NCBI GenBank assembly: GCA_035764005.1
Contig: DASTZZ010000125.1
Location: 1-64,000 of the forward strand
DNA length: 64,000 bases
DNA from: Terriglobales bacterium
Lineage (GTDB): Bacteria; Acidobacteriota; Terriglobia; Terriglobales; Acidobacteriaceae
Reading direction: 5' to 3'
The translations under genes and the position numbers were made by a program. Of the stretch, positions 1,997-10,827 are shown piece after piece. The notes below the pieces were generated by a model. That model was not told where the DNA came from and did not search any database. It saw only the letters and a list, made by a program, of their open reading frames with translations. Positions within the stretch are counted from its first letter, which is position 1, and each line of letters begins with the position of its first letter.

Positions 1997-2569
1997 ATGA
2001 AACTCTCAACAAAGCTTGAGGTAGCCGCGAATGTTGCAACCATTGTACTGGCCTCGGTAGCTTGTTTCGTGTTTATCAGAGGAAGCTTTAACTCCCCTCC
2101 CCGAGCAGCCCAGTCATCTCTTGCGCGAACACAGAGTCAGGTCGGCGCGAACCTAGCACATTCTTCTCTCCCTGTTGATTGGAGAGCCAACGATCGGACC
2201 CTAATTCTGGGGATGCAAACGACCTGTCACTTTTGTACAGATAGTGCTCCGTTTTTCAAAAGATTGTCCGCAGCTGCTTCGGGAAATGTGAAACTCGTTG
2301 CAGTGTTACCACAAACTGTGAATGACTCCAGAGCTTATCTAACTAAGTTGGGTGTGCATGTTGACGATGTCGTGCAAGAGCAACTTTCAACAGTAGGCAT
2401 ATCTGGTACACCTACGCTCCTTCTTGTGGATAAAAACGGTGTAGTTAAGAATGTGTGGGTAGGCAAATTACCGCCTGAACGAGAAGCTGAAGTGCTATCA
2501 GTCATCCAGAATAGAGCAGACTCCAAAAAAGCGAAGATGACGATGTTCAAGCATTCCCCAATCGGCTGA
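1997..2569 (+). CDS. Membrane-anchored thioredoxin-like (TlpA/redoxin-type) protein
   Basis: A 190-residue protein. Residues about 10-28 form an N-terminal transmembrane anchor, placing the rest outside the cytoplasmic membrane. The thioredoxin fold follows: the active-site motif is CHFC (77-80) in a TTCHFCTDSAPFF context, and the cis-proline loop is ISGTPTLLLVDKNG with Pro139. This is the arrangement of extracytoplasmic thiol-disulfide oxidoreductases. AGGGGTG at 1985-1991 serves as the ribosome-binding site. It lies 1 kb upstream of a secreted protein with about 34 cysteines, so a role in forming or isomerising its disulfides is an attractive inference. It could equally be a general redoxin. 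Confidence 0.8.
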   Translation: MKLSTKLEVAANVATIVLASVACFVFIRGSFNSPPRAAQSSLARTQSQVGANLAHSSLPVDWRANDRTLILGMQTTCHFCTDSAPFFKRLSAAASGNVKLVAVLPQTVNDSRAYLTKLGVHVDDVVQEQLSTVGISGTPTLLLVDKNGVVKNVWVGKLPPEREAEVLSVIQNRADSKKAKMTMFKHSPIG

Positions 2570-2757: not shown

Positions 2758-3492
2758 ATGATGTATAGATTGATGATTGCTACAAGACTGCTGACTTATT
2801 TTCTTTGTGTTATGGCGGCTTCGCTAGCAGCCCAACAGGCCTCTCCTGAGCAGAACTCCGCTGTACTAAGGCGCCAACGGGAAATTCAAGCCGCTCACGT
2901 TCCCGGATCGAAAACCGTCCGCTTAGAGCGTTACACACGAGATGATCCGGTTCGTGTAGTCGGGATCATGGAAGACGGTCGGGATATTTCCGCAACCCCG
3001 CCGTTCAGACCAACGGATGGTAAACCGTTCTTGCCGAATGACAGTGAAAACTGGATTAAGGACATCAAAGTCGTAATCAAAAATGTGTCAAATAAGAAAA
3101 TCGTTGGCGGAAGTATTCTACTCTTATTTCCGGAAACGATCACCGCCGAGCACCCAGGAGTTGCCCAGTCAATTACGCTTGGACAAAGGCCAGAGCACTA
3201 TTCTCCGATCGCGAGGCACACCGTTAAAGGGTCATCTGATACTCCTCCTTTAAGCCTTCTCCCAGGTGAAGAATTGACAGTTTCAGTCGAGCCGTATTAC
3301 GCCTCGCTAAAAGGGGCTCTCGCAGCCAAGGGCCCAGTATCAACAATTAGCAGCTGCATGGTTAAACTCAGCTTTTTCTACTTCGCTGATGGAACGAGAT
3401 GGGCCCCTAACAATTTCCAGAAGCTTGGTTCTGACGGCAAATACACGAATATTAGCGTGGATGAGTTCCGATCGACTACGAGTGCGGATTAG
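2758..3492 (+). CDS. Secreted protein with an Ig-like domain, unknown function
   Basis: A 244-residue protein with a clear signal peptide (hydrophobic core within residues 5-22, likely cleavage after SLAAQ). The mature part contains a beta-rich segment, WIKDIKVVIKNVSNKKIVGG followed by LLLFPET, which looks like an immunoglobulin-like fold. It ends with a YFADGTRWAPNNF region. Acidobacterial secreted proteins with this 'KNVS...' pattern are familiar to me, but I cannot name a function. GAGAGGACG just before the ATG is the likely ribosome-binding site. It is the third gene of the cassette and lies 50 bases upstream of the Cys-rich protein, which suggests co-transcription and a shared extracellular role. 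Confidence 0.65.
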   Translation: MMYRLMIATRLLTYFLCVMAASLAAQQASPEQNSAVLRRQREIQAAHVPGSKTVRLERYTRDDPVRVVGIMEDGRDISATPPFRPTDGKPFLPNDSENWIKDIKVVIKNVSNKKIVGGSILLLFPETITAEHPGVAQSITLGQRPEHYSPIARHTVKGSSDTPPLSLLPGEELTVSVEPYYASLKGALAAKGPVSTISSCMVKLSFFYFADGTRWAPNNFQKLGSDGKYTNISVDEFRSTTSAD

Positions 3493-3542: not shown

Positions 3543-4778
3543 ATGCGTTCACTCTTGTTGCTACTCAGAGCTACTACAATTCTGGTTTTGGCGGTCGTTT
3601 TGTTTATGCATCCTAGGACTGTATATGGGCAATTTGGTAATTGCGAAACCTTTAACACCGACCAAACATGCTGCAGTGATAATCAAAGCTCTTGTACTCT
3701 TCCCAACAATTGTGCAGACTTTATCATAACTGGTAACGGGACCGGTACCAAGACACCTCAACCATTTAGTGTTTCCTGCACAGCGGAGAGTACTTGTGGT
3801 TCGCCTTGTCCGAGCTGCCAGGATTTGAGCGGCTTTATCGCAGTTGACAACGGCAATTGTTGTGCAAGCGGAGGCGACGCCTGCAACACGTCAAGCGACT
3901 GTTGTTCCCCCATGATTTGTTCGAGCGGCCAGTGTCTGGCATGTGCTCCGGAAGGAAGGTCATGTACGGCGGACTCCGATTGCTGCCAGTCCTCAGACGT
4001 TTGTCGTAACGGGACCTGTAGTGCACCTTGCCAAGTTTTCCCTTCGAATTGCGCGGATTGGGACGCCACGAATTGCATCTGTAATTCCTGCCCCGACACT
4101 TCCTATTGTCCCCAGGATCCGTACACCGAATTTCCTGCTGATCCGTGCTCGTCTGGAGGAACTGATAAGAACGGCTGCCCAGACGGCGCGGTTGACGACG
4201 GTGCGTGCTGCTATTGGCAGGGTAGCCCAATAATCATCGATACTGACGGCAGCGGGTTCTGCCTCGGTGATGTAGCACATGGCGTCAGCTTTGATTTCTT
4301 TGCAACCGGTACGCCTGTCCGCGTTTCGTGGACCGATCTCGGCTGCAGTAATGCATGGTTGGTACTTGACCGGAACGGGAATGGCGAGATTGACAGCGCT
4401 AAAGAGATGTTTGGCGATACTACTGATCAACCGCCATCGTCGAATCCGAACGGGTTTCTTGCACTCGCAGAATTCGACAAAACCGAAAACGGCGGCAACG
4501 ACGATGGAGTGATTGACGCGCGCGATGTTGTATACACGAGACTGCGCCTATGGATCGATCGTAATCACAACGGCATTTCCGAGTCCGATGAACTCTCCAC
4601 ACTTCCGCAGCTTAACGTATCTTCAATTGACTTAAAGTATCAAGAGCACAAGTGGAAGGATGGATACGGTAACATGTTTCGATTCAGATCTAAGGTGGAT
4701 GACGCTGCGCATAGCTCTACCAGCCGCTGGGCATATGACGTTTTCCTGCATTTCGCCAACGGAAGCAAATCGCGTTGA
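3543..4778 (+). CDS. Secreted Cys-rich protein with two knottin-like repeats and EF-hand-like loops
   Basis: A 411-residue protein with a signal peptide (residues 1-30, VYGQ cleavage region). The N-terminal half (33-225) holds about 32 cysteines. Two successive units share the spacing C-x6-C-x5-C-C-x4/5-C-x4-C: C107-C131 and C134-C159. This is the spacing seen in inhibitor-cystine-knot and Dickkopf-type modules. The C-terminal half begins SPIIIDTDGSGF and carries EF-hand-like Asp/Asn loops at D233-G238, D276-D284 and D339-E350. It ends with a conserved block (GNMFRFRSKVDDA, RWAYDVFLHFANG) known from acidobacterial secreted proteins. It is the last gene of a cassette with a thioredoxin-like protein. 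The protein probably needs oxidative folding and calcium outside the cell. Its target or role is unknown. Confidence 0.75.
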   Translation: MRSLLLLLRATTILVLAVVLFMHPRTVYGQFGNCETFNTDQTCCSDNQSSCTLPNNCADFIITGNGTGTKTPQPFSVSCTAESTCGSPCPSCQDLSGFIAVDNGNCCASGGDACNTSSDCCSPMICSSGQCLACAPEGRSCTADSDCCQSSDVCRNGTCSAPCQVFPSNCADWDATNCICNSCPDTSYCPQDPYTEFPADPCSSGGTDKNGCPDGAVDDGACCYWQGSPIIIDTDGSGFCLGDVAHGVSFDFFATGTPVRVSWTDLGCSNAWLVLDRNGNGEIDSAKEMFGDTTDQPPSSNPNGFLALAEFDKTENGGNDDGVIDARDVVYTRLRLWIDRNHNGISESDELSTLPQLNVSSIDLKYQEHKWKDGYGNMFRFRSKVDDAAHSSTSRWAYDVFLHFANGSKSR

Positions 4779-4833: not shown

Positions 4834-4939
4834 GCCTGTCGGAGATAGATTTTCTGGAACGAAGAATCAACAACTTACACGAAAGCCGCTGTCTGTAGGT
4901 TGTTGATTCCTGGTTCGGGAATCATTTACCGCGACAGGC
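4834..4939. repeat. MITE-like imperfect hairpin element
   Basis: GCCTGTCG at 4834-4841 pairs with CGACAGGC at 4932-4939. The inner 16-base arms (4864-4879 and 4894-4909) pair with a single G-T mismatch. Intermediate parts (TTTCTGGAAC versus the complement of TGGTTCGGGAA) also align, so the two ~47-base ends form an imperfect terminal inverted repeat around a short loop. There is no coding capacity. It sits between two convergent genes and could act as a transcription barrier, but it lacks a proper U-tract. Confidence 0.6.
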
Positions 4940-4989
4940 TTTCAGGCTGTCGCACTTTGTTGAGGTTGTCCCGCTTTGTTGTTTCCTGG

Positions 4990-5627: not shown

Positions 5628-5876
5628 ATGCGCAACTCGATTCTTGCTGGTACTCTCACCTTCATTCTCATTCTTCAACCACTGGCGCTGGCTCAGGAAA
5701 AGCCGTCTTCGCGGCTCGTCACGAACCCTGAACAAGTCGCGAACCCTGAACAAAAAGGAGCGACGGACGTCAATCCGATCGCTCCTGGTTTTGGTTTTGA
5801 ATTTTCCGGGTTTGCGTTTCGTCTAAGCGGCTTTCACTTCTACTCTGTTTGCTTTCGTTGTTGTGGCTTTGGGTAA
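5628..5876 (+). CDS. Possible small secreted protein, doubtful
   Basis: The first 23 residues (hydrophobic core around LAGTLTFILILQPLALAQ) look like a genuine signal peptide with an AQ cleavage site. The rest is short, contains a repeated NPEQ unit, and then runs through a terminator hairpin and 54 bases antisense to the Hsp20 gene, where it becomes Phe/Gly/Cys-rich. No strong ribosome-binding site precedes the ATG. It may be a degraded secreted protein gene that lost its end. Confidence 0.25.
   Translation: MRNSILAGTLTFILILQPLALAQEKPSSRLVTNPEQVANPEQKGATDVNPIAPGFGFEFSGFAFRLSGFHFYSVCFRCCGFG
5752..5786 (-). terminator. Intrinsic terminator of the Hsp20 gene
   Basis: On the minus strand an 8-bp stem (AGGAGCGA/TCGCTCCT) with a 15-base loop is followed directly by TTTTTG. 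It lies 37 bases beyond the stop codon of the Hsp20 gene. The A-rich left side and T-rich right side may make it work in both directions. Confidence 0.7.
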
Positions 5877-6347
5877 GGTGATGTGGAGCACGCCGTCTTG
5901 CACGCTTGCTGTCACTCTATCGGGATTCACTTTCGTGGGAAGGTTCAACACTCGGAAGAGCTGGTTCTTCTGCGTTTCGCTGTAGATCGTTCTACCCGCC
6001 GATCTCTGCTTGCTCTTTTCTGCCTCTCCGCGGATCAAGAGTCGCGTTGGCTCGACTCTGACTTCCAGATCCTTTGGCGTAAAACCAGGCACTTCAGCCC
6101 GCACGGTCAGTGTTTCATCATTGTCGGCAATTTCGACCGGAACCGGCTGTAGTATCTCTGATTCGGCGCGCAGCCAATCGTCGAAGTGCTGTCCGTGGGT
6201 GTATCCGCGCTGCGCAAATAGTTCATAGGCGCGATTTGAGATCTCGCTATAAAGCTCTGTCAAAGTGTGATCGAAGGTGCTGGTCGGCTCTGGCATGGTG
6301 ATGACGGTGGGACTCGCTGCGGGAGCGAATGCCGCTTGACCTTTCAT
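5823..6347 (-). CDS. Hsp20/alpha-crystallin small heat-shock protein with N-terminal DUF2934-like segment
   Basis: A 174-residue cytoplasmic holdase chaperone. Residues about 70-160 form the alpha-crystallin domain: VEIADNDETLTVRAEVPGF at the start, and the conserved DGVLHITLPK strand at 151-160. Residues 33-65 (ISNRAYELFAQRGYTHGQHF then DDWLRAE) match the DUF2934 pattern, normally a separate short domain; the combination is unusual. The start is supported by AAAAGGAG eight bases before ATG. No CIRCE element is visible upstream. The gene has its own intrinsic terminator and is monocistronic. Confidence 0.9.
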   Translation of the reverse strand: MKGQAAFAPAASPTVITMPEPTSTFDHTLTELYSEISNRAYELFAQRGYTHGQHFDDWLRAESEILQPVPVEIADNDETLTVRAEVPGFTPKDLEVRVEPTRLLIRGEAEKSKQRSAGRTIYSETQKNQLFRVLNLPTKVNPDRVTASVQDGVLHITLPKATTTKANRVEVKAA

Positions 6348-7013: not shown

Positions 7014-8819
7014 TCAGAAGGGGCTGGCGAACTTCGGGTCACTCAGGAACGCGTTGTCCGTCAGAGTATTCAAGAAATTGATGAGGTCTTGTTTGTCCGT
7101 AGATGACAGGTTCAGCTTTCGAACGGTGCCATCTGAGTTTTTAAGAAGCGGGTCGAGGTCAGGATTGTTCTGTACGCCGTTGTCGTAAAAGTCGATCACC
7201 GAGCTCAATCCCTCGAAACGGCCGTCGTGCATGAACCATATTCTTGCGCCGACATTGCGCAGCGACGGCGCCTTGAACTTTCCCGAGCCGGCGCCGACAT
7301 CTTGGGTCACCAGGTCCAGGCCAATGTTGTGGATTGTGTCACTCACGTGTCCGCCGGTGGTGTGGCACTGCGCGCAGCCCAGGCTGGTAAACAGCGCTTG
7401 ACCGTGCTGCTCTGAGGCATTGAACACAGCAGCGAAGTTCGGATTGCCGTTCGTGCCTGCTGCGAATGCCTGGTCGAACTTCGACTGGTAGCTGACCATA
7501 GAACGTATGAACTGCGCCAGCGCCGACGATATGCGATCGGGCGTGATGTCGGGCGTGCCGAATGCAGCCTGGAACAAGCCAGGATAGTAGGTGGTCTGCG
7601 CCATTTTCGGTATCAGCGTGGAAAGACTGTTGCCCATCTCAATGGAGTTTTGAATCGGCTGCAAGACCTGTTCTTCGAGCGTGGCGGCGCGCTCGTCGGA
7701 GAAGAAATGTCCGCGCTGGTAGAACTTGGCGTTGGAAAGGCCCATACTGCGGCGCGTCGTCAGGCCGCCTTGAAAGCCGACACTCAGCTGGTTGGGATCT
7801 GCGAATCCGTCCTGCTGTTGATGGCATGAACCGCACGACGTTGTGTTGTTGGCCGAGAGGAACTTGTCATAGAACAATACACGGCCGAGCGTCGCGCCGG
7901 CATTGGTGATCGGATTCGTGGCAGGCGTATTGTCAGTGCCCGCAAGGTTGCCGGCCGGTGAATTGGGATTCTTGTAGTGCTGCGGAAGGTTCGTGACCGC
8001 ATAGCCCACGTAGTCGAACATGACGTTCGGCAGATTGGGTGGAGGCGGGAACGGTAGGACCACCGAGAAGCCTTGCGATTCAGTGGCATTGATGTTTGGG
8101 TTCCGGACCGAGACGATCACGGTGCTGGAGGCTGTCTGGGAGCCTCCTCCGAGTGTGAATGCTATGACGCCGGGCGCGGTGAGCGTGCCGCCGAAATCAA
8201 CTGAACAGCACAAAATGCCTGGGCCCTGTGGCTGGATGATCGCGATTGCGCCGGGAATGAAATTGCTGCCGGTAATGGTGAATGTGACCAGGCCGCTTCG
8301 TTGCGTCACACTCACGCTTGCGATCGACGGTGTCGGCACTTCGCTTACAAGTTGCACGCTAAGATTCGCGCTCAAGGACGGCGACGCTGATTGCACCGCG
8401 CCGATAGTCACGGTCCGGGCAAAGGGCAAGATGGTTGGGGCCGTGTAGCGGCCCGATGAGTCAATCGTACCGAAGGCGGCACTTCCACCGTTGACACCGT
8501 TCACCGACCACTGGACGACGGCCGTGGTGCCGTCTGACAACACAGCGGTGAAAACGCTCGTGGTTCCTGCACGCACGCTAGTCGCTCCTTGCACAGTCAT
8601 GGTGAGCACGGGAGCGGGCGGGGGTGGTGGAGGAGGTGGCGGGGGCGCAGGTTGTTGGGTTGAATTGACCGCAGGCGCCGCTGAAGCGGCACCTGATGCG
8701 CCGCACCCGGCAAGCGCAGCCGCAAACAAAAACATCGCGGCCAGGTAGCACCAGGTGAGAAACAGATTTTGTGAAAAACCTGCGCGATCAACAAAAAGAA
8801 AGAGGGGGCCCGAGTTCAA
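7014..8819 (-). CDS. Di-heme cytochrome c peroxidase/MauG-type lipoprotein with Ig-like domains (copy 1)
   Basis: A 601-residue protein. The N-terminus has a hydrophobic segment and a lipobox-like AALAGC (Cys39), then a Pro-rich linker. About 95 residues of BIG2-like Ig domain (70-160) are present only in this copy. An IPT/TIG-like domain (165-255) and the CCP/MauG catalytic part follow. Heme-binding motifs are CGSCH (329-333) and CAQCH (482-486), followed by the FMHDGRF segment. Such proteins reduce peroxide or oxidise substrates in the periplasm; the substrate is unknown. The start is TTG, at the position of the ATG in the paralogue 2 kb away, with AGGAAG upstream. The catalytic halves of the two copies are nearly identical, pointing to recent duplication or gene conversion. 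Confidence 0.88.
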   Translation of the reverse strand: MNSGPLFLFVDRAGFSQNLFLTWCYLAAMFLFAAALAGCGASGAASAAPAVNSTQQPAPPPPPPPPPPAPVLTMTVQGATSVRAGTTSVFTAVLSDGTTAVVQWSVNGVNGGSAAFGTIDSSGRYTAPTILPFARTVTIGAVQSASPSLSANLSVQLVSEVPTPSIASVSVTQRSGLVTFTITGSNFIPGAIAIIQPQGPGILCCSVDFGGTLTAPGVIAFTLGGGSQTASSTVIVSVRNPNINATESQGFSVVLPFPPPPNLPNVMFDYVGYAVTNLPQHYKNPNSPAGNLAGTDNTPATNPITNAGATLGRVLFYDKFLSANNTTSCGSCHQQQDGFADPNQLSVGFQGGLTTRRSMGLSNAKFYQRGHFFSDERAATLEEQVLQPIQNSIEMGNSLSTLIPKMAQTTYYPGLFQAAFGTPDITPDRISSALAQFIRSMVSYQSKFDQAFAAGTNGNPNFAAVFNASEQHGQALFTSLGCAQCHTTGGHVSDTIHNIGLDLVTQDVGAGSGKFKAPSLRNVGARIWFMHDGRFEGLSSVIDFYDNGVQNNPDLDPLLKNSDGTVRKLNLSSTDKQDLINFLNTLTDNAFLSDPKFASPF

Positions 8820-9315: not shown

Positions 9316-10827
9316 TCAGAACACGTCGGCGAACTTCGGATCGTTCAGGAACGTGTTGTCCGTCAGAGTATTCAAGAAATTGACTAGGTCTTGTTCGTCC
9401 GAAAATGACAGATTCAGCCTGCGCACCGTTCCATCTGAGTTGCGAAGCAGCGGGTCCAGGTCAGGATTATCCTGCACGCCGTTGTTGTAAAAGTCGATCA
9501 CCTGCTGCAATGCCCCAAAGCGGCCGTCGTGCATGAACCATATTCTTGCGCCGACGTTGCGCAGTGACGGCGCCTTGAACTTTCCCGAGCCGGCACCGGC
9601 ATCTTGGGTCACCAGGTCCAGGCCAATGTTGTGGATTGTGTCACTCACGTGTCCGCCGGTGGTGTGACACTGTGCGCAGCCCAGGCTGGTGAACAGCGCT
9701 TGACCGTGCTGCTCTGAGGCAGTGAACACAGCGGCGAAGTTCGGATTGCCGTTTGTGCCTGCTGCGAATGCCTGGTCGAACTTCGACTGGTAGCTGACCA
9801 TGGAGCGTATGAACTGCGCCAGCGCGAATGACATGCGATCGGGCGTGATGTCGGGCGTGCCGAATGCCGCCTGGAAGAGGCCCGGATAGTAGGTGGTCTG
9901 CGCCATTTTTGGTATCAGCGTGGAAAGACTGTTGCCCATCTCAATGGGATCTTGGATCGGCTGCAAGACCTGGTCTTCGAGCGTGGCGGCGCGCTCGTCC
10001 GAGAAGAAATGTCCGCGCTGGTAGTACTTGGCGTTGGAAAGGGTCATACTGCGTCGCTTTGTCAGGCCGCCTTGAAAGCCGACGCTCAACTGGTTGATAT
10101 CTCCGAATCCGAGCTGCTGTTGATGGCATGAACCGCACGAGGTGGTGTTGTTGGCCGAGAGCAGCCTGTCATAGAACAGGACACGGCCGAGCGTCGCGCC
10201 GGCATTCGTGATCGGATTCGTGGCAGGCGTATTGTCGGTGCCCGCAAGGTTCCCTGCCGGCGAATTGGGATCTTTGTAGTGCGGCGGAAGATTGGTGACC
10301 GCATAGCCCACGTAGTCGAACATGACGTTCGGCAGATTGGGTGGCGGCGGGAACGGTATGTCCACGGAGACGCCTTGGGATTGCGTGTTGTTCGGATTCC
10401 GGACGGTGACGCTCACGGTGCTGGAGGCCGTCGCGGAGCGTCCTGGGATTGTGGCTACGATGGCGCCGGCCGCATTGAGCCCGCCAACCTGTATGTCTGA
10501 ACAGCACAAAATGCCCGGACCCTGTGGGTGGATGATCCCGGTCACGCCCGGCAGGAAATTGCTTCCAGTAATCGTGAATGTGATTTGGTCGAGGCCAAAG
10601 TTGGTGTGTTGCGTGACAGTCACGCTTGCGATCGACGGTGCCGGCGGGGGTGGCGGAGGAGGTGGGGTTCGAGTAACTGCAGTCTCCGGTGAAGCGGATG
10701 ATCCGCCGCCGCATCCGGCAATCGCCACCACAACTAAAAAGATCGCGGCCAGGCAGCACCACGCGAAAAACAAATTTTGGGGAAAGCCTGCGCGCTCAAC
10801 AAAGGGATCGAGGGGGTCGGCGTTCAT
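9316..10827 (-). CDS. Di-heme cytochrome c peroxidase/MauG-type lipoprotein (copy 2)
   Basis: A 503-residue paralogue of the neighbouring gene. It has an N-terminal hydrophobic segment with lipobox-like AIAGC (Cys39) and a Pro-rich linker, then a single IPT/TIG-like domain (65-160) and the peroxidase part with CGSCH (231-235) and CAQCH (384-388). The BIG2-like Ig domain of copy 1 is absent. The start ATG is supported by TAGGAG eight bases upstream. The Cys-Cys pair in GPGILCCS is conserved in both copies and could form a disulfide or metal site. Both copies are expected to be anchored in the cell envelope. Their substrate is not evident from the neighbourhood. Confidence 0.9.
   Translation of the reverse strand: MNADPLDPFVERAGFPQNLFFAWCCLAAIFLVVVAIAGCGGGSSASPETAVTRTPPPPPPPPAPSIASVTVTQHTNFGLDQITFTITGSNFLPGVTGIIHPQGPGILCCSDIQVGGLNAAGAIVATIPGRSATASSTVSVTVRNPNNTQSQGVSVDIPFPPPPNLPNVMFDYVGYAVTNLPPHYKDPNSPAGNLAGTDNTPATNPITNAGATLGRVLFYDRLLSANNTTSCGSCHQQQLGFGDINQLSVGFQGGLTKRRSMTLSNAKYYQRGHFFSDERAATLEDQVLQPIQDPIEMGNSLSTLIPKMAQTTYYPGLFQAAFGTPDITPDRMSFALAQFIRSMVSYQSKFDQAFAAGTNGNPNFAAVFTASEQHGQALFTSLGCAQCHTTGGHVSDTIHNIGLDLVTQDAGAGSGKFKAPSLRNVGARIWFMHDGRFGALQQVIDFYNNGVQDNPDLDPLLRNSDGTVRRLNLSFSDEQDLVNFLNTLTDNTFLNDPKFADVF

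What the first reader, a model, noticed from the sequence alone, without database searches (positions are those of the whole stretch)
3543..4778. Bacterial secreted protein with two tandem knottin-like cysteine units and EF-hand-like loops
Residues C107-C131 and C134-C159 follow C-x6-C-x5-C-C-x4/5-C-x4-C, the spacing of inhibitor cystine knots in conotoxins and spider toxins and similar to Dickkopf modules. They sit in a 34-cysteine protein with at least three Asp/Asn loops of EF-hand type. A bacterial scaffold of this kind could be a stable binding or toxin module.
Basis: partly seen in the sequence, partly recalled or inferred. Interest (0 to 1): 0.75.

Follow-up and report, generated by a model that had tools for sequence, protein, structure and literature searches.

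The report
Bacterial double cystine-knot, calcium-module protein
A soil bacterium (probably an acidobacterium) encodes a secreted, disulfide-rich protein in which two tandem cystine-knot modules of the kind seen in animal toxins and Dickkopf proteins sit in front of a calcium-binding domain related to meningococcal FrpC, next to a thioredoxin-like gene that looks like its dedicated helper.

Summary
The 411-aa ORF has 34 Cys; C107-C131 and C134-C159 fit the stated spacing exactly, and no shuffle in 200,000 gave it twice. An AlphaFold model of the pair is of medium confidence (pLDDT about 78). Its best matches are cystine-knot folds: Dkk1, Dkk4 and colipase for the pair; spider, cone-snail and squash knottins for single units. 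The bond pattern was not read out.

The "EF-hand loops" are not separate. They are the calcium sites of one C-terminal domain homologous to the FrpC self-processing module (SPM; sequence E 1.7e-20, fold E 4e-13). FrpC's scissile Asp is Ser228 here; in 79 of 79 readable acidobacterial relatives from the genome scan it is Ser or Thr.

The domain is fused to many different Cys-rich passengers. Knot-like units recur in six other loci, scattered over the tree. The window gene follows a membrane thioredoxin-like gene and a small secreted-protein gene; this order recurs in three of those six and in none of 74 other loci. Fusions join either neighbour to the SPM.

Most likely it is an exported binding-type protein with dedicated disulfide handling. 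The toxin reading has no support beyond the scaffold. New variant of known parts.

The parts
1997..2569 (+). membrane-anchored thioredoxin-like (redoxin) gene with CHFC motif; first gene of the cassette
   Evidence: Redoxin/Thioredoxin_2 matches just under Pfam cut-offs; single copy in own genome; relatives beside the SPM gene in eight loci and fused to SPM in L040 and L093
2758..3492 (+). g2, small predicted secreted protein without Pfam family; second gene of the cassette
   Evidence: profile from other loci matches it at E 4e-19; homologues upstream of, or fused in front of, SPM-like proteins; no Pfam hit
3543..4778 (+). the reported gene: Cys-rich protein with SPM-like C-terminal domain, 411 aa
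3543..3629 (+). likely Sec signal peptide, residues 1-29
   Evidence: read by eye: basic start, long hydrophobic stretch, VYG-Q; no signal-peptide program was available
3861..3935 (+). cystine-knot-like unit 1, residues 107-131
   Evidence: spacing, profile, fold
3942..4019 (+). cystine-knot-like unit 2, residues 134-159
   Evidence: spacing, profile, fold
4224..4229 (+). Ser228-Pro229, equivalent of the scissile Asp414-Pro415 of FrpC
   Evidence: alignment, FrpC paper PMC7078468, Ser/Thr in 79 of 79 acidobacterial relatives
4227..4748 (+). FrpC-SPM-like calcium domain, residues 229-402
   Evidence: PDB 6sjw/6sjx: phmmer E 1.7e-20, Foldseek E 4e-13, TM 0.77
4239..4256 (+). partial calcium loop D233-G238 (FrpC D419-G424); D423 equivalent is Ser
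   Evidence: alignment, sites from PMC7078468
4368..4406 (+). calcium loop D276-E288 (FrpC D462-E474)
   Evidence: alignment
4476..4526 (+). calcium loop D312-D328 with a five-residue insertion (FrpC D499-D511)
   Evidence: alignment
4557..4592 (+). calcium loop D339-E350 (FrpC D521-E532)
   Evidence: alignment

Best explanation
The gene makes a Sec-exported, disulfide-rich surface or extracellular protein. Its passenger half carries two tandem inhibitor-cystine-knot (colipase/Dickkopf-like) modules that most likely serve as compact, protease-resistant binding modules. Its C-terminal half is a calcium-binding SPM-like domain that folds after export, when it meets calcium, and acts as a common C-terminal cap or anchoring module shared by many different passengers. 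It is unlikely to do FrpC's Asp-anhydride clip-and-link, because the scissile Asp is Ser. The two genes upstream form a cassette with it: a membrane-tethered CHFC thioredoxin-like protein that forms or proofreads the passenger's many disulfides, and a small secreted partner, g2. Shown: domain homology, cysteine pattern, gene order and fusions, loss of the Asp. Predicted: knot fold. Inferred: calcium binding, redox role, binding function.
For: SPM homology by sequence and fold; ICK spacing, profile and fold; the same C-terminal domain on unrelated Cys-rich passengers; ICK units before it in six other loci, scattered on the SPM tree; redoxin-g2-SPM order in the window, L032, L066 and L097, all with ICK units, 3 of 6 against 0 of 74; redoxin fused to SPM in L040 and L093, g2 fused to SPM in five loci; co-occurrence of redoxin and SPM in 9 of 247 genomes where about 1.4 are expected, p 3e-7; no Asp at the FrpC cut site.
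Against: Disulfide pairing was not read out; the pair model is of medium confidence (pTM 0.45) and the Cys-rich half is poorly modelled in the long model. The cassette is not obligatory: many SPM genes lack the redoxin. No ligand, anchor partner or secretion route is known. One of four calcium sites is degraded. g2 in L066 is a weak match.
Confidence: 0.55

Rival explanations
1. The SPM-like domain is still self-processing, but by another chemistry: the Ser/Thr (Cys in a few) before the invariant Pro attacks the preceding carbonyl (acyl shift, as in SEA or GPS domains) when calcium folds the domain, releasing or transferring the passenger.
For: Pro invariant and the residue before it Ser or Thr in 79 of 79, Cys in L004 and L011, while the residue before that varies freely.
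Against: Ser/Thr-Pro may simply cap a turn; Thr and Ala also occur in some proteobacterial SPMs; no cleavage data; SEA/GPS likeness is from memory.
Confidence: 0.1
2. The ICK pair is an effector, toxin or antimicrobial or protease-inhibitor head delivered to competitors or predators.
For: Same scaffold as venom knottins and squash inhibitors.
Against: The scaffold shows no function; no immunity or dedicated secretion gene seen beside it; relatives put a unit behind a metalloprotease-like sequence (L049); the units are followed by a shared C-terminal domain.
Confidence: 0.12
3. The cysteines are a loose Cys-rich linker or redox buffer; the ICK spacing is a by-product of high Cys content and the disulfides are not knotted.
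For: 32 Cys in 197 residues; loose ICK spacing appears twice in 0.8% of shuffles; unit 2 scores weakly with the outside profile.
Against: The strict spacing never appears twice in shuffles; profile and fold matches are to knottins; similar units recur in other loci.
Confidence: 0.15
4. The cysteines bind zinc or another metal.
For: Density of CC and closely spaced Cys only.
Against: No zinc-binding family among Pfam or NCBIfam hits; exported protein with a linked thioredoxin-like gene.
Confidence: 0.03

Closest known systems
[quoted passage not shown] PMC7078468)
   Same: Homologous over the whole domain by sequence and fold; three EF-hand-like loops, Trp pair and the invariant Pro kept
   Different: Scissile Asp replaced by Ser; fourth calcium site weakened; five-residue insertion in one loop; C-terminal in a Sec-type Cys-rich protein, not inside an RTX protein
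Dickkopf cysteine-rich domains and colipase
   Same: Tandem knot arrangement; model of the pair matches Dkk1 (Z 5.2), colipase (Z 5.1), Dkk4 (TM 0.63)
   Different: Dickkopf_N below Pfam cut-off; the rest of the protein is unrelated; no evidence of common descent
Venom and plant knottins (conotoxin GXIA, SGTx1, hainantoxin, EETI-II)
   Same: Cysteine spacing and predicted fold of single units
   Different: Part of a larger bacterial protein, not a free peptide; Conotoxin_I2 and Toxin_12 below cut-off
Pfam DUF7107 (PF23416)
   Same: Match over residues 114-159 above the curated cut-off when the pair is scanned alone (26.0 against 24.6 bits; 25.8 in the genome search)
   Different: Below cut-off for the whole protein (20.8); function of the family unknown

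Membership tests
Inhibitor cystine knot (knottin) | Six-Cys spacing C-x6-C-x5-CC-x4/5-C-x4-C | tested here: met
   Exact in both units
Inhibitor cystine knot (knottin) | Knottin fold | tested here: met
   Predicted only, medium confidence: hairpin in each unit; knottin and Dkk/colipase folds dominate the matches
Inhibitor cystine knot (knottin) | Disulfides 1-4, 2-5, 3-6 | not testable with these tools
   No coordinates returned; needs MS or NMR
Dickkopf / colipase-like | Double-unit fold | tested here: inconclusive
   Top matches 3s2k_C Z 5.2, 1lpb_A Z 5.1, 5o57 Z 4.7; Z under 8
Dickkopf / colipase-like | Profile match above cut-off (Dickkopf_N) | tested here: not met
   18.5 bits against 25
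FrpC-type SPM | Homology over the whole domain | tested here: met
   phmmer E 1.7e-20, Foldseek E 4e-13
FrpC-type SPM | EF-hand-like calcium loops | tested here: met
   Three loops aligned, fourth partial; binding itself not tested
FrpC-type SPM | Scissile Asp-Pro at the N-terminal edge | tested here: not met
   Ser228-Pro229; hence called SPM-like, not a self-processing module
RTX proteins | Glycine-rich nonapeptide repeats | tested here: not met
   No haemolysin-type calcium repeat among Pfam hits and none by eye
Canonical EF-hand proteins | Pfam EF-hand match above cut-off | tested here: not met
   EF-hand_1 14.3 against 25.4 bits

The most novel reading that the evidence does not exclude
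Acidobacteria use an SPM-derived C-terminal module with a Ser/Thr/Cys-Pro junction as a calcium-triggered self-processing or transfer device by acyl shift, to release or attach disulfide-knotted passengers matured by a dedicated membrane thioredoxin-like protein: a previously undescribed export-and-display system.
Probability: 0.08. Interest if true: 0.85.

Novelty: new variant of a known kind. Interest (0 to 1): 0.55.

Why it matters
Cystine-knot units are mostly studied in animals, plants and fungi (own knowledge). Tandem knottin-like units inside a bacterial exoprotein, recurring in several acidobacterial lineages with a linked redox partner, would be a natural bacterial route to making such disulfide scaffolds. 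The widespread FrpC-SPM-like C-terminal domain with a uniformly changed scissile residue also makes it testable whether SPM folds have a function other than Asp-anhydride chemistry, which is already used as a protein-ligation tool (NeissLock, PMC7846742).

Tried and rejected
Search of the Cys-rich half alone in 396 genomes of the phylum: only weak matches near the threshold. ICK-unit profile in the same number of genomes: apart from the window only one strong hit, G289, so the units are rare. NCBIfam: no hit. Plasmid collection with the ICK pair: no match. Literature for bacterial knottins or Dickkopf-like domains: nothing relevant in the held library, so no claim of first report is made. My typing slips: alignment A1 row 2 carried nine extra residues added by mistake, and A4 row 2 a wrong start. 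One search's redoxin count of 11 includes two within-ORF fusions and the doubtful L036 (APFCSVC, 97 bits). Two first attempts to judge neighbours by Pfam gave nothing for g2. Zinc binding, canonical EF-hand and RTX membership were considered and rejected.

Full report
Observation. The ORF 3543-4778 (+) codes for 411 residues with 34 cysteines, 32 of them in residues 31-227. Residues 107-131 and 134-159 have exactly the stated spacing. In shuffles of the Cys-rich region the strict pattern occurred once in 229 of 200,000 and never twice; with a loose pattern 0.8% had two or more. The strict pattern was chosen after seeing the sequence, so these figures describe rather than test. A stronger test is a profile made only from units of other proteins: it finds both units in register, unit 1 clearly (19 bits) and unit 2 weakly (3.4 bits after bias correction).

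Fold of the units. An AlphaFold model of residues 101-165 with six relatives reached pLDDT 70-90 for 51 of 65 residues, pTM 0.45, with one beta hairpin in each unit. The whole pair matches Dkk4 (TM 0.63), Dkk1 (Z 5.2) and colipase (Z 5.1); single units match conotoxin GXIA, SGTx1, hainantoxin, EETI-II and other cystine knots at about 0.7-1.6 A. E-values and Z are modest, as expected for folds of 30-60 residues, but knottins and the related colipase/Dkk folds dominate the list. Pfam DUF7107 matches the pair above its cut-off; Conotoxin_I2, Dickkopf_N and Toxin_12 match below theirs; no zinc-binding family appears. Disulfide pairs could not be read from the model, so the knot is predicted, not shown.

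The EF-hand loops. Residues 229-380 match the FrpC self-processing module in the PDB at E 1.7e-20, and the model of this half (pLDDT mostly above 90) matches it at Foldseek E 4e-13, TM 0.77. D276-E288, D312-D328 and D339-E350 correspond to the three FrpC calcium loops listed in PMC7078468, and W263/W337 to its Trp pair. The fourth site is weakened (S237 for D423; N270 for D456, by my reading of the alignment). FrpC cuts its Asp414-Pro415 bond; the equivalent here is Ser228-Pro229.

The family. Where the junction could be read, the residue before the invariant Pro is Ser (60) or Thr (19) in 79 of 79; Cys occurs in L004 and L011. The search patterns did not include this position. Seven proteobacterial plasmid relatives show Asp in four, Thr in two and Ala in one. 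The domain sits at or near the C-terminus of very different, mostly Cys-rich passengers. ICK-like units stand before it in L032 (three), L092 (two), L049, L066, L096 and L097. On the SPM tree the ICK-bearing rows are scattered, with at least three changes forced by well-supported branches, as expected for modules that are shuffled.

The cassette. Upstream and co-oriented lie a membrane-anchored thioredoxin-like protein with a CHFC motif (1997-2569) and a 244-aa predicted secreted protein, g2 (2758-3492). The redoxin is single-copy in this genome. Relatives of it lie beside the SPM gene in eight loci (nine with the doubtful L036), and in L040 and L093 it is fused behind the SPM domain in one ORF. 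The g2 core is found in 18 loci including weak ones, and is fused in front of the SPM domain in L057, L105, L076, L064 and L086. The complete order redoxin-g2-SPM is found in the window, L032, L066 and L097, all four with ICK units; among the 80 scanned loci this is 3 of 6 ICK loci against 0 of 74 others (p = 2.4e-4; loci are not fully independent, the comparison was made after seeing the data, and g2 in L066 is a weak match). In 247 genomes of the phylum, 21 have the SPM-like domain, 16 the redoxin and 9 both, where about 1.4 are expected (p = 3e-7). Three of the 11 strongest redoxin hits (E <= 1e-30) lie within about 2 kb of an SPM-like gene: G000, G289 and G318, the last on the opposite strand. 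The linkage is real but not obligatory.

Mechanism. The best reading is an exported protein whose passenger is stabilised by cystine knots, whose disulfides are formed or proofread by the linked redoxin, and whose C-terminal SPM-like domain folds on meeting calcium outside the cytoplasm and serves as a shared cap or anchor. Homology, gene order, fusions and loss of the Asp are shown; the knot fold is predicted; calcium binding, redox partnership and ligand binding are inferred. A toxin role has no support beyond the shared scaffold. That Ser/Thr-Pro marks a different self-processing chemistry is possible and testable, but a structural reason for Ser/Thr-Pro is enough to explain it.

Novelty. 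Each part is of a known kind. The combination, its recurrence with a redox partner and the uniform loss of the Asp were not found described in the library searched, which does not cover most subscription journals. I rate it a new variant of a known kind.

Noticed in passing
window 4224-4229 and 79 acidobacterial SPM-like domains (L030-L109): The residue before the invariant Pro, Asp in FrpC, is always Ser or Thr in the acidobacterial domains (Cys in L004 and L011), while proteobacterial relatives mostly keep Asp.
   Followed up: partly
L040:3920-5098 and L093:3-1058: One ORF carries an SPM-like domain followed by a CHFC thioredoxin-like domain, a natural fusion of the two neighbouring genes of the window.
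   Followed up: yes
L049 and L004: The passenger in front of the SPM-like domain holds a zincin-type HExxHxxGL sequence, so some of these proteins may be secreted metalloproteases.
   Followed up: no
L007/L011 and L013-L016 (genomes G089, G023): Several SPM-like genes are broken across frames, which may mean pseudogenes or assembly errors; genome G023 has several copies.
   Followed up: no
window 7014-8819 (-) and 9316-10827 (-): Two paralogous secreted di-haem cytochrome c peroxidase (MauG-like) genes side by side; the first has a CCP_MauG Pfam match, the second is alike by eye.
   Followed up: no
window 5826-6347 (-): A protein that fuses a DUF2934 domain to an Hsp20 domain.
   Followed up: no
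window 4850-4945: Inverted-repeat-like sequence downstream of the gene (aatcaacaactta... and ...taggttgttgatt), perhaps a terminator or a small repeat element.
   Followed up: no
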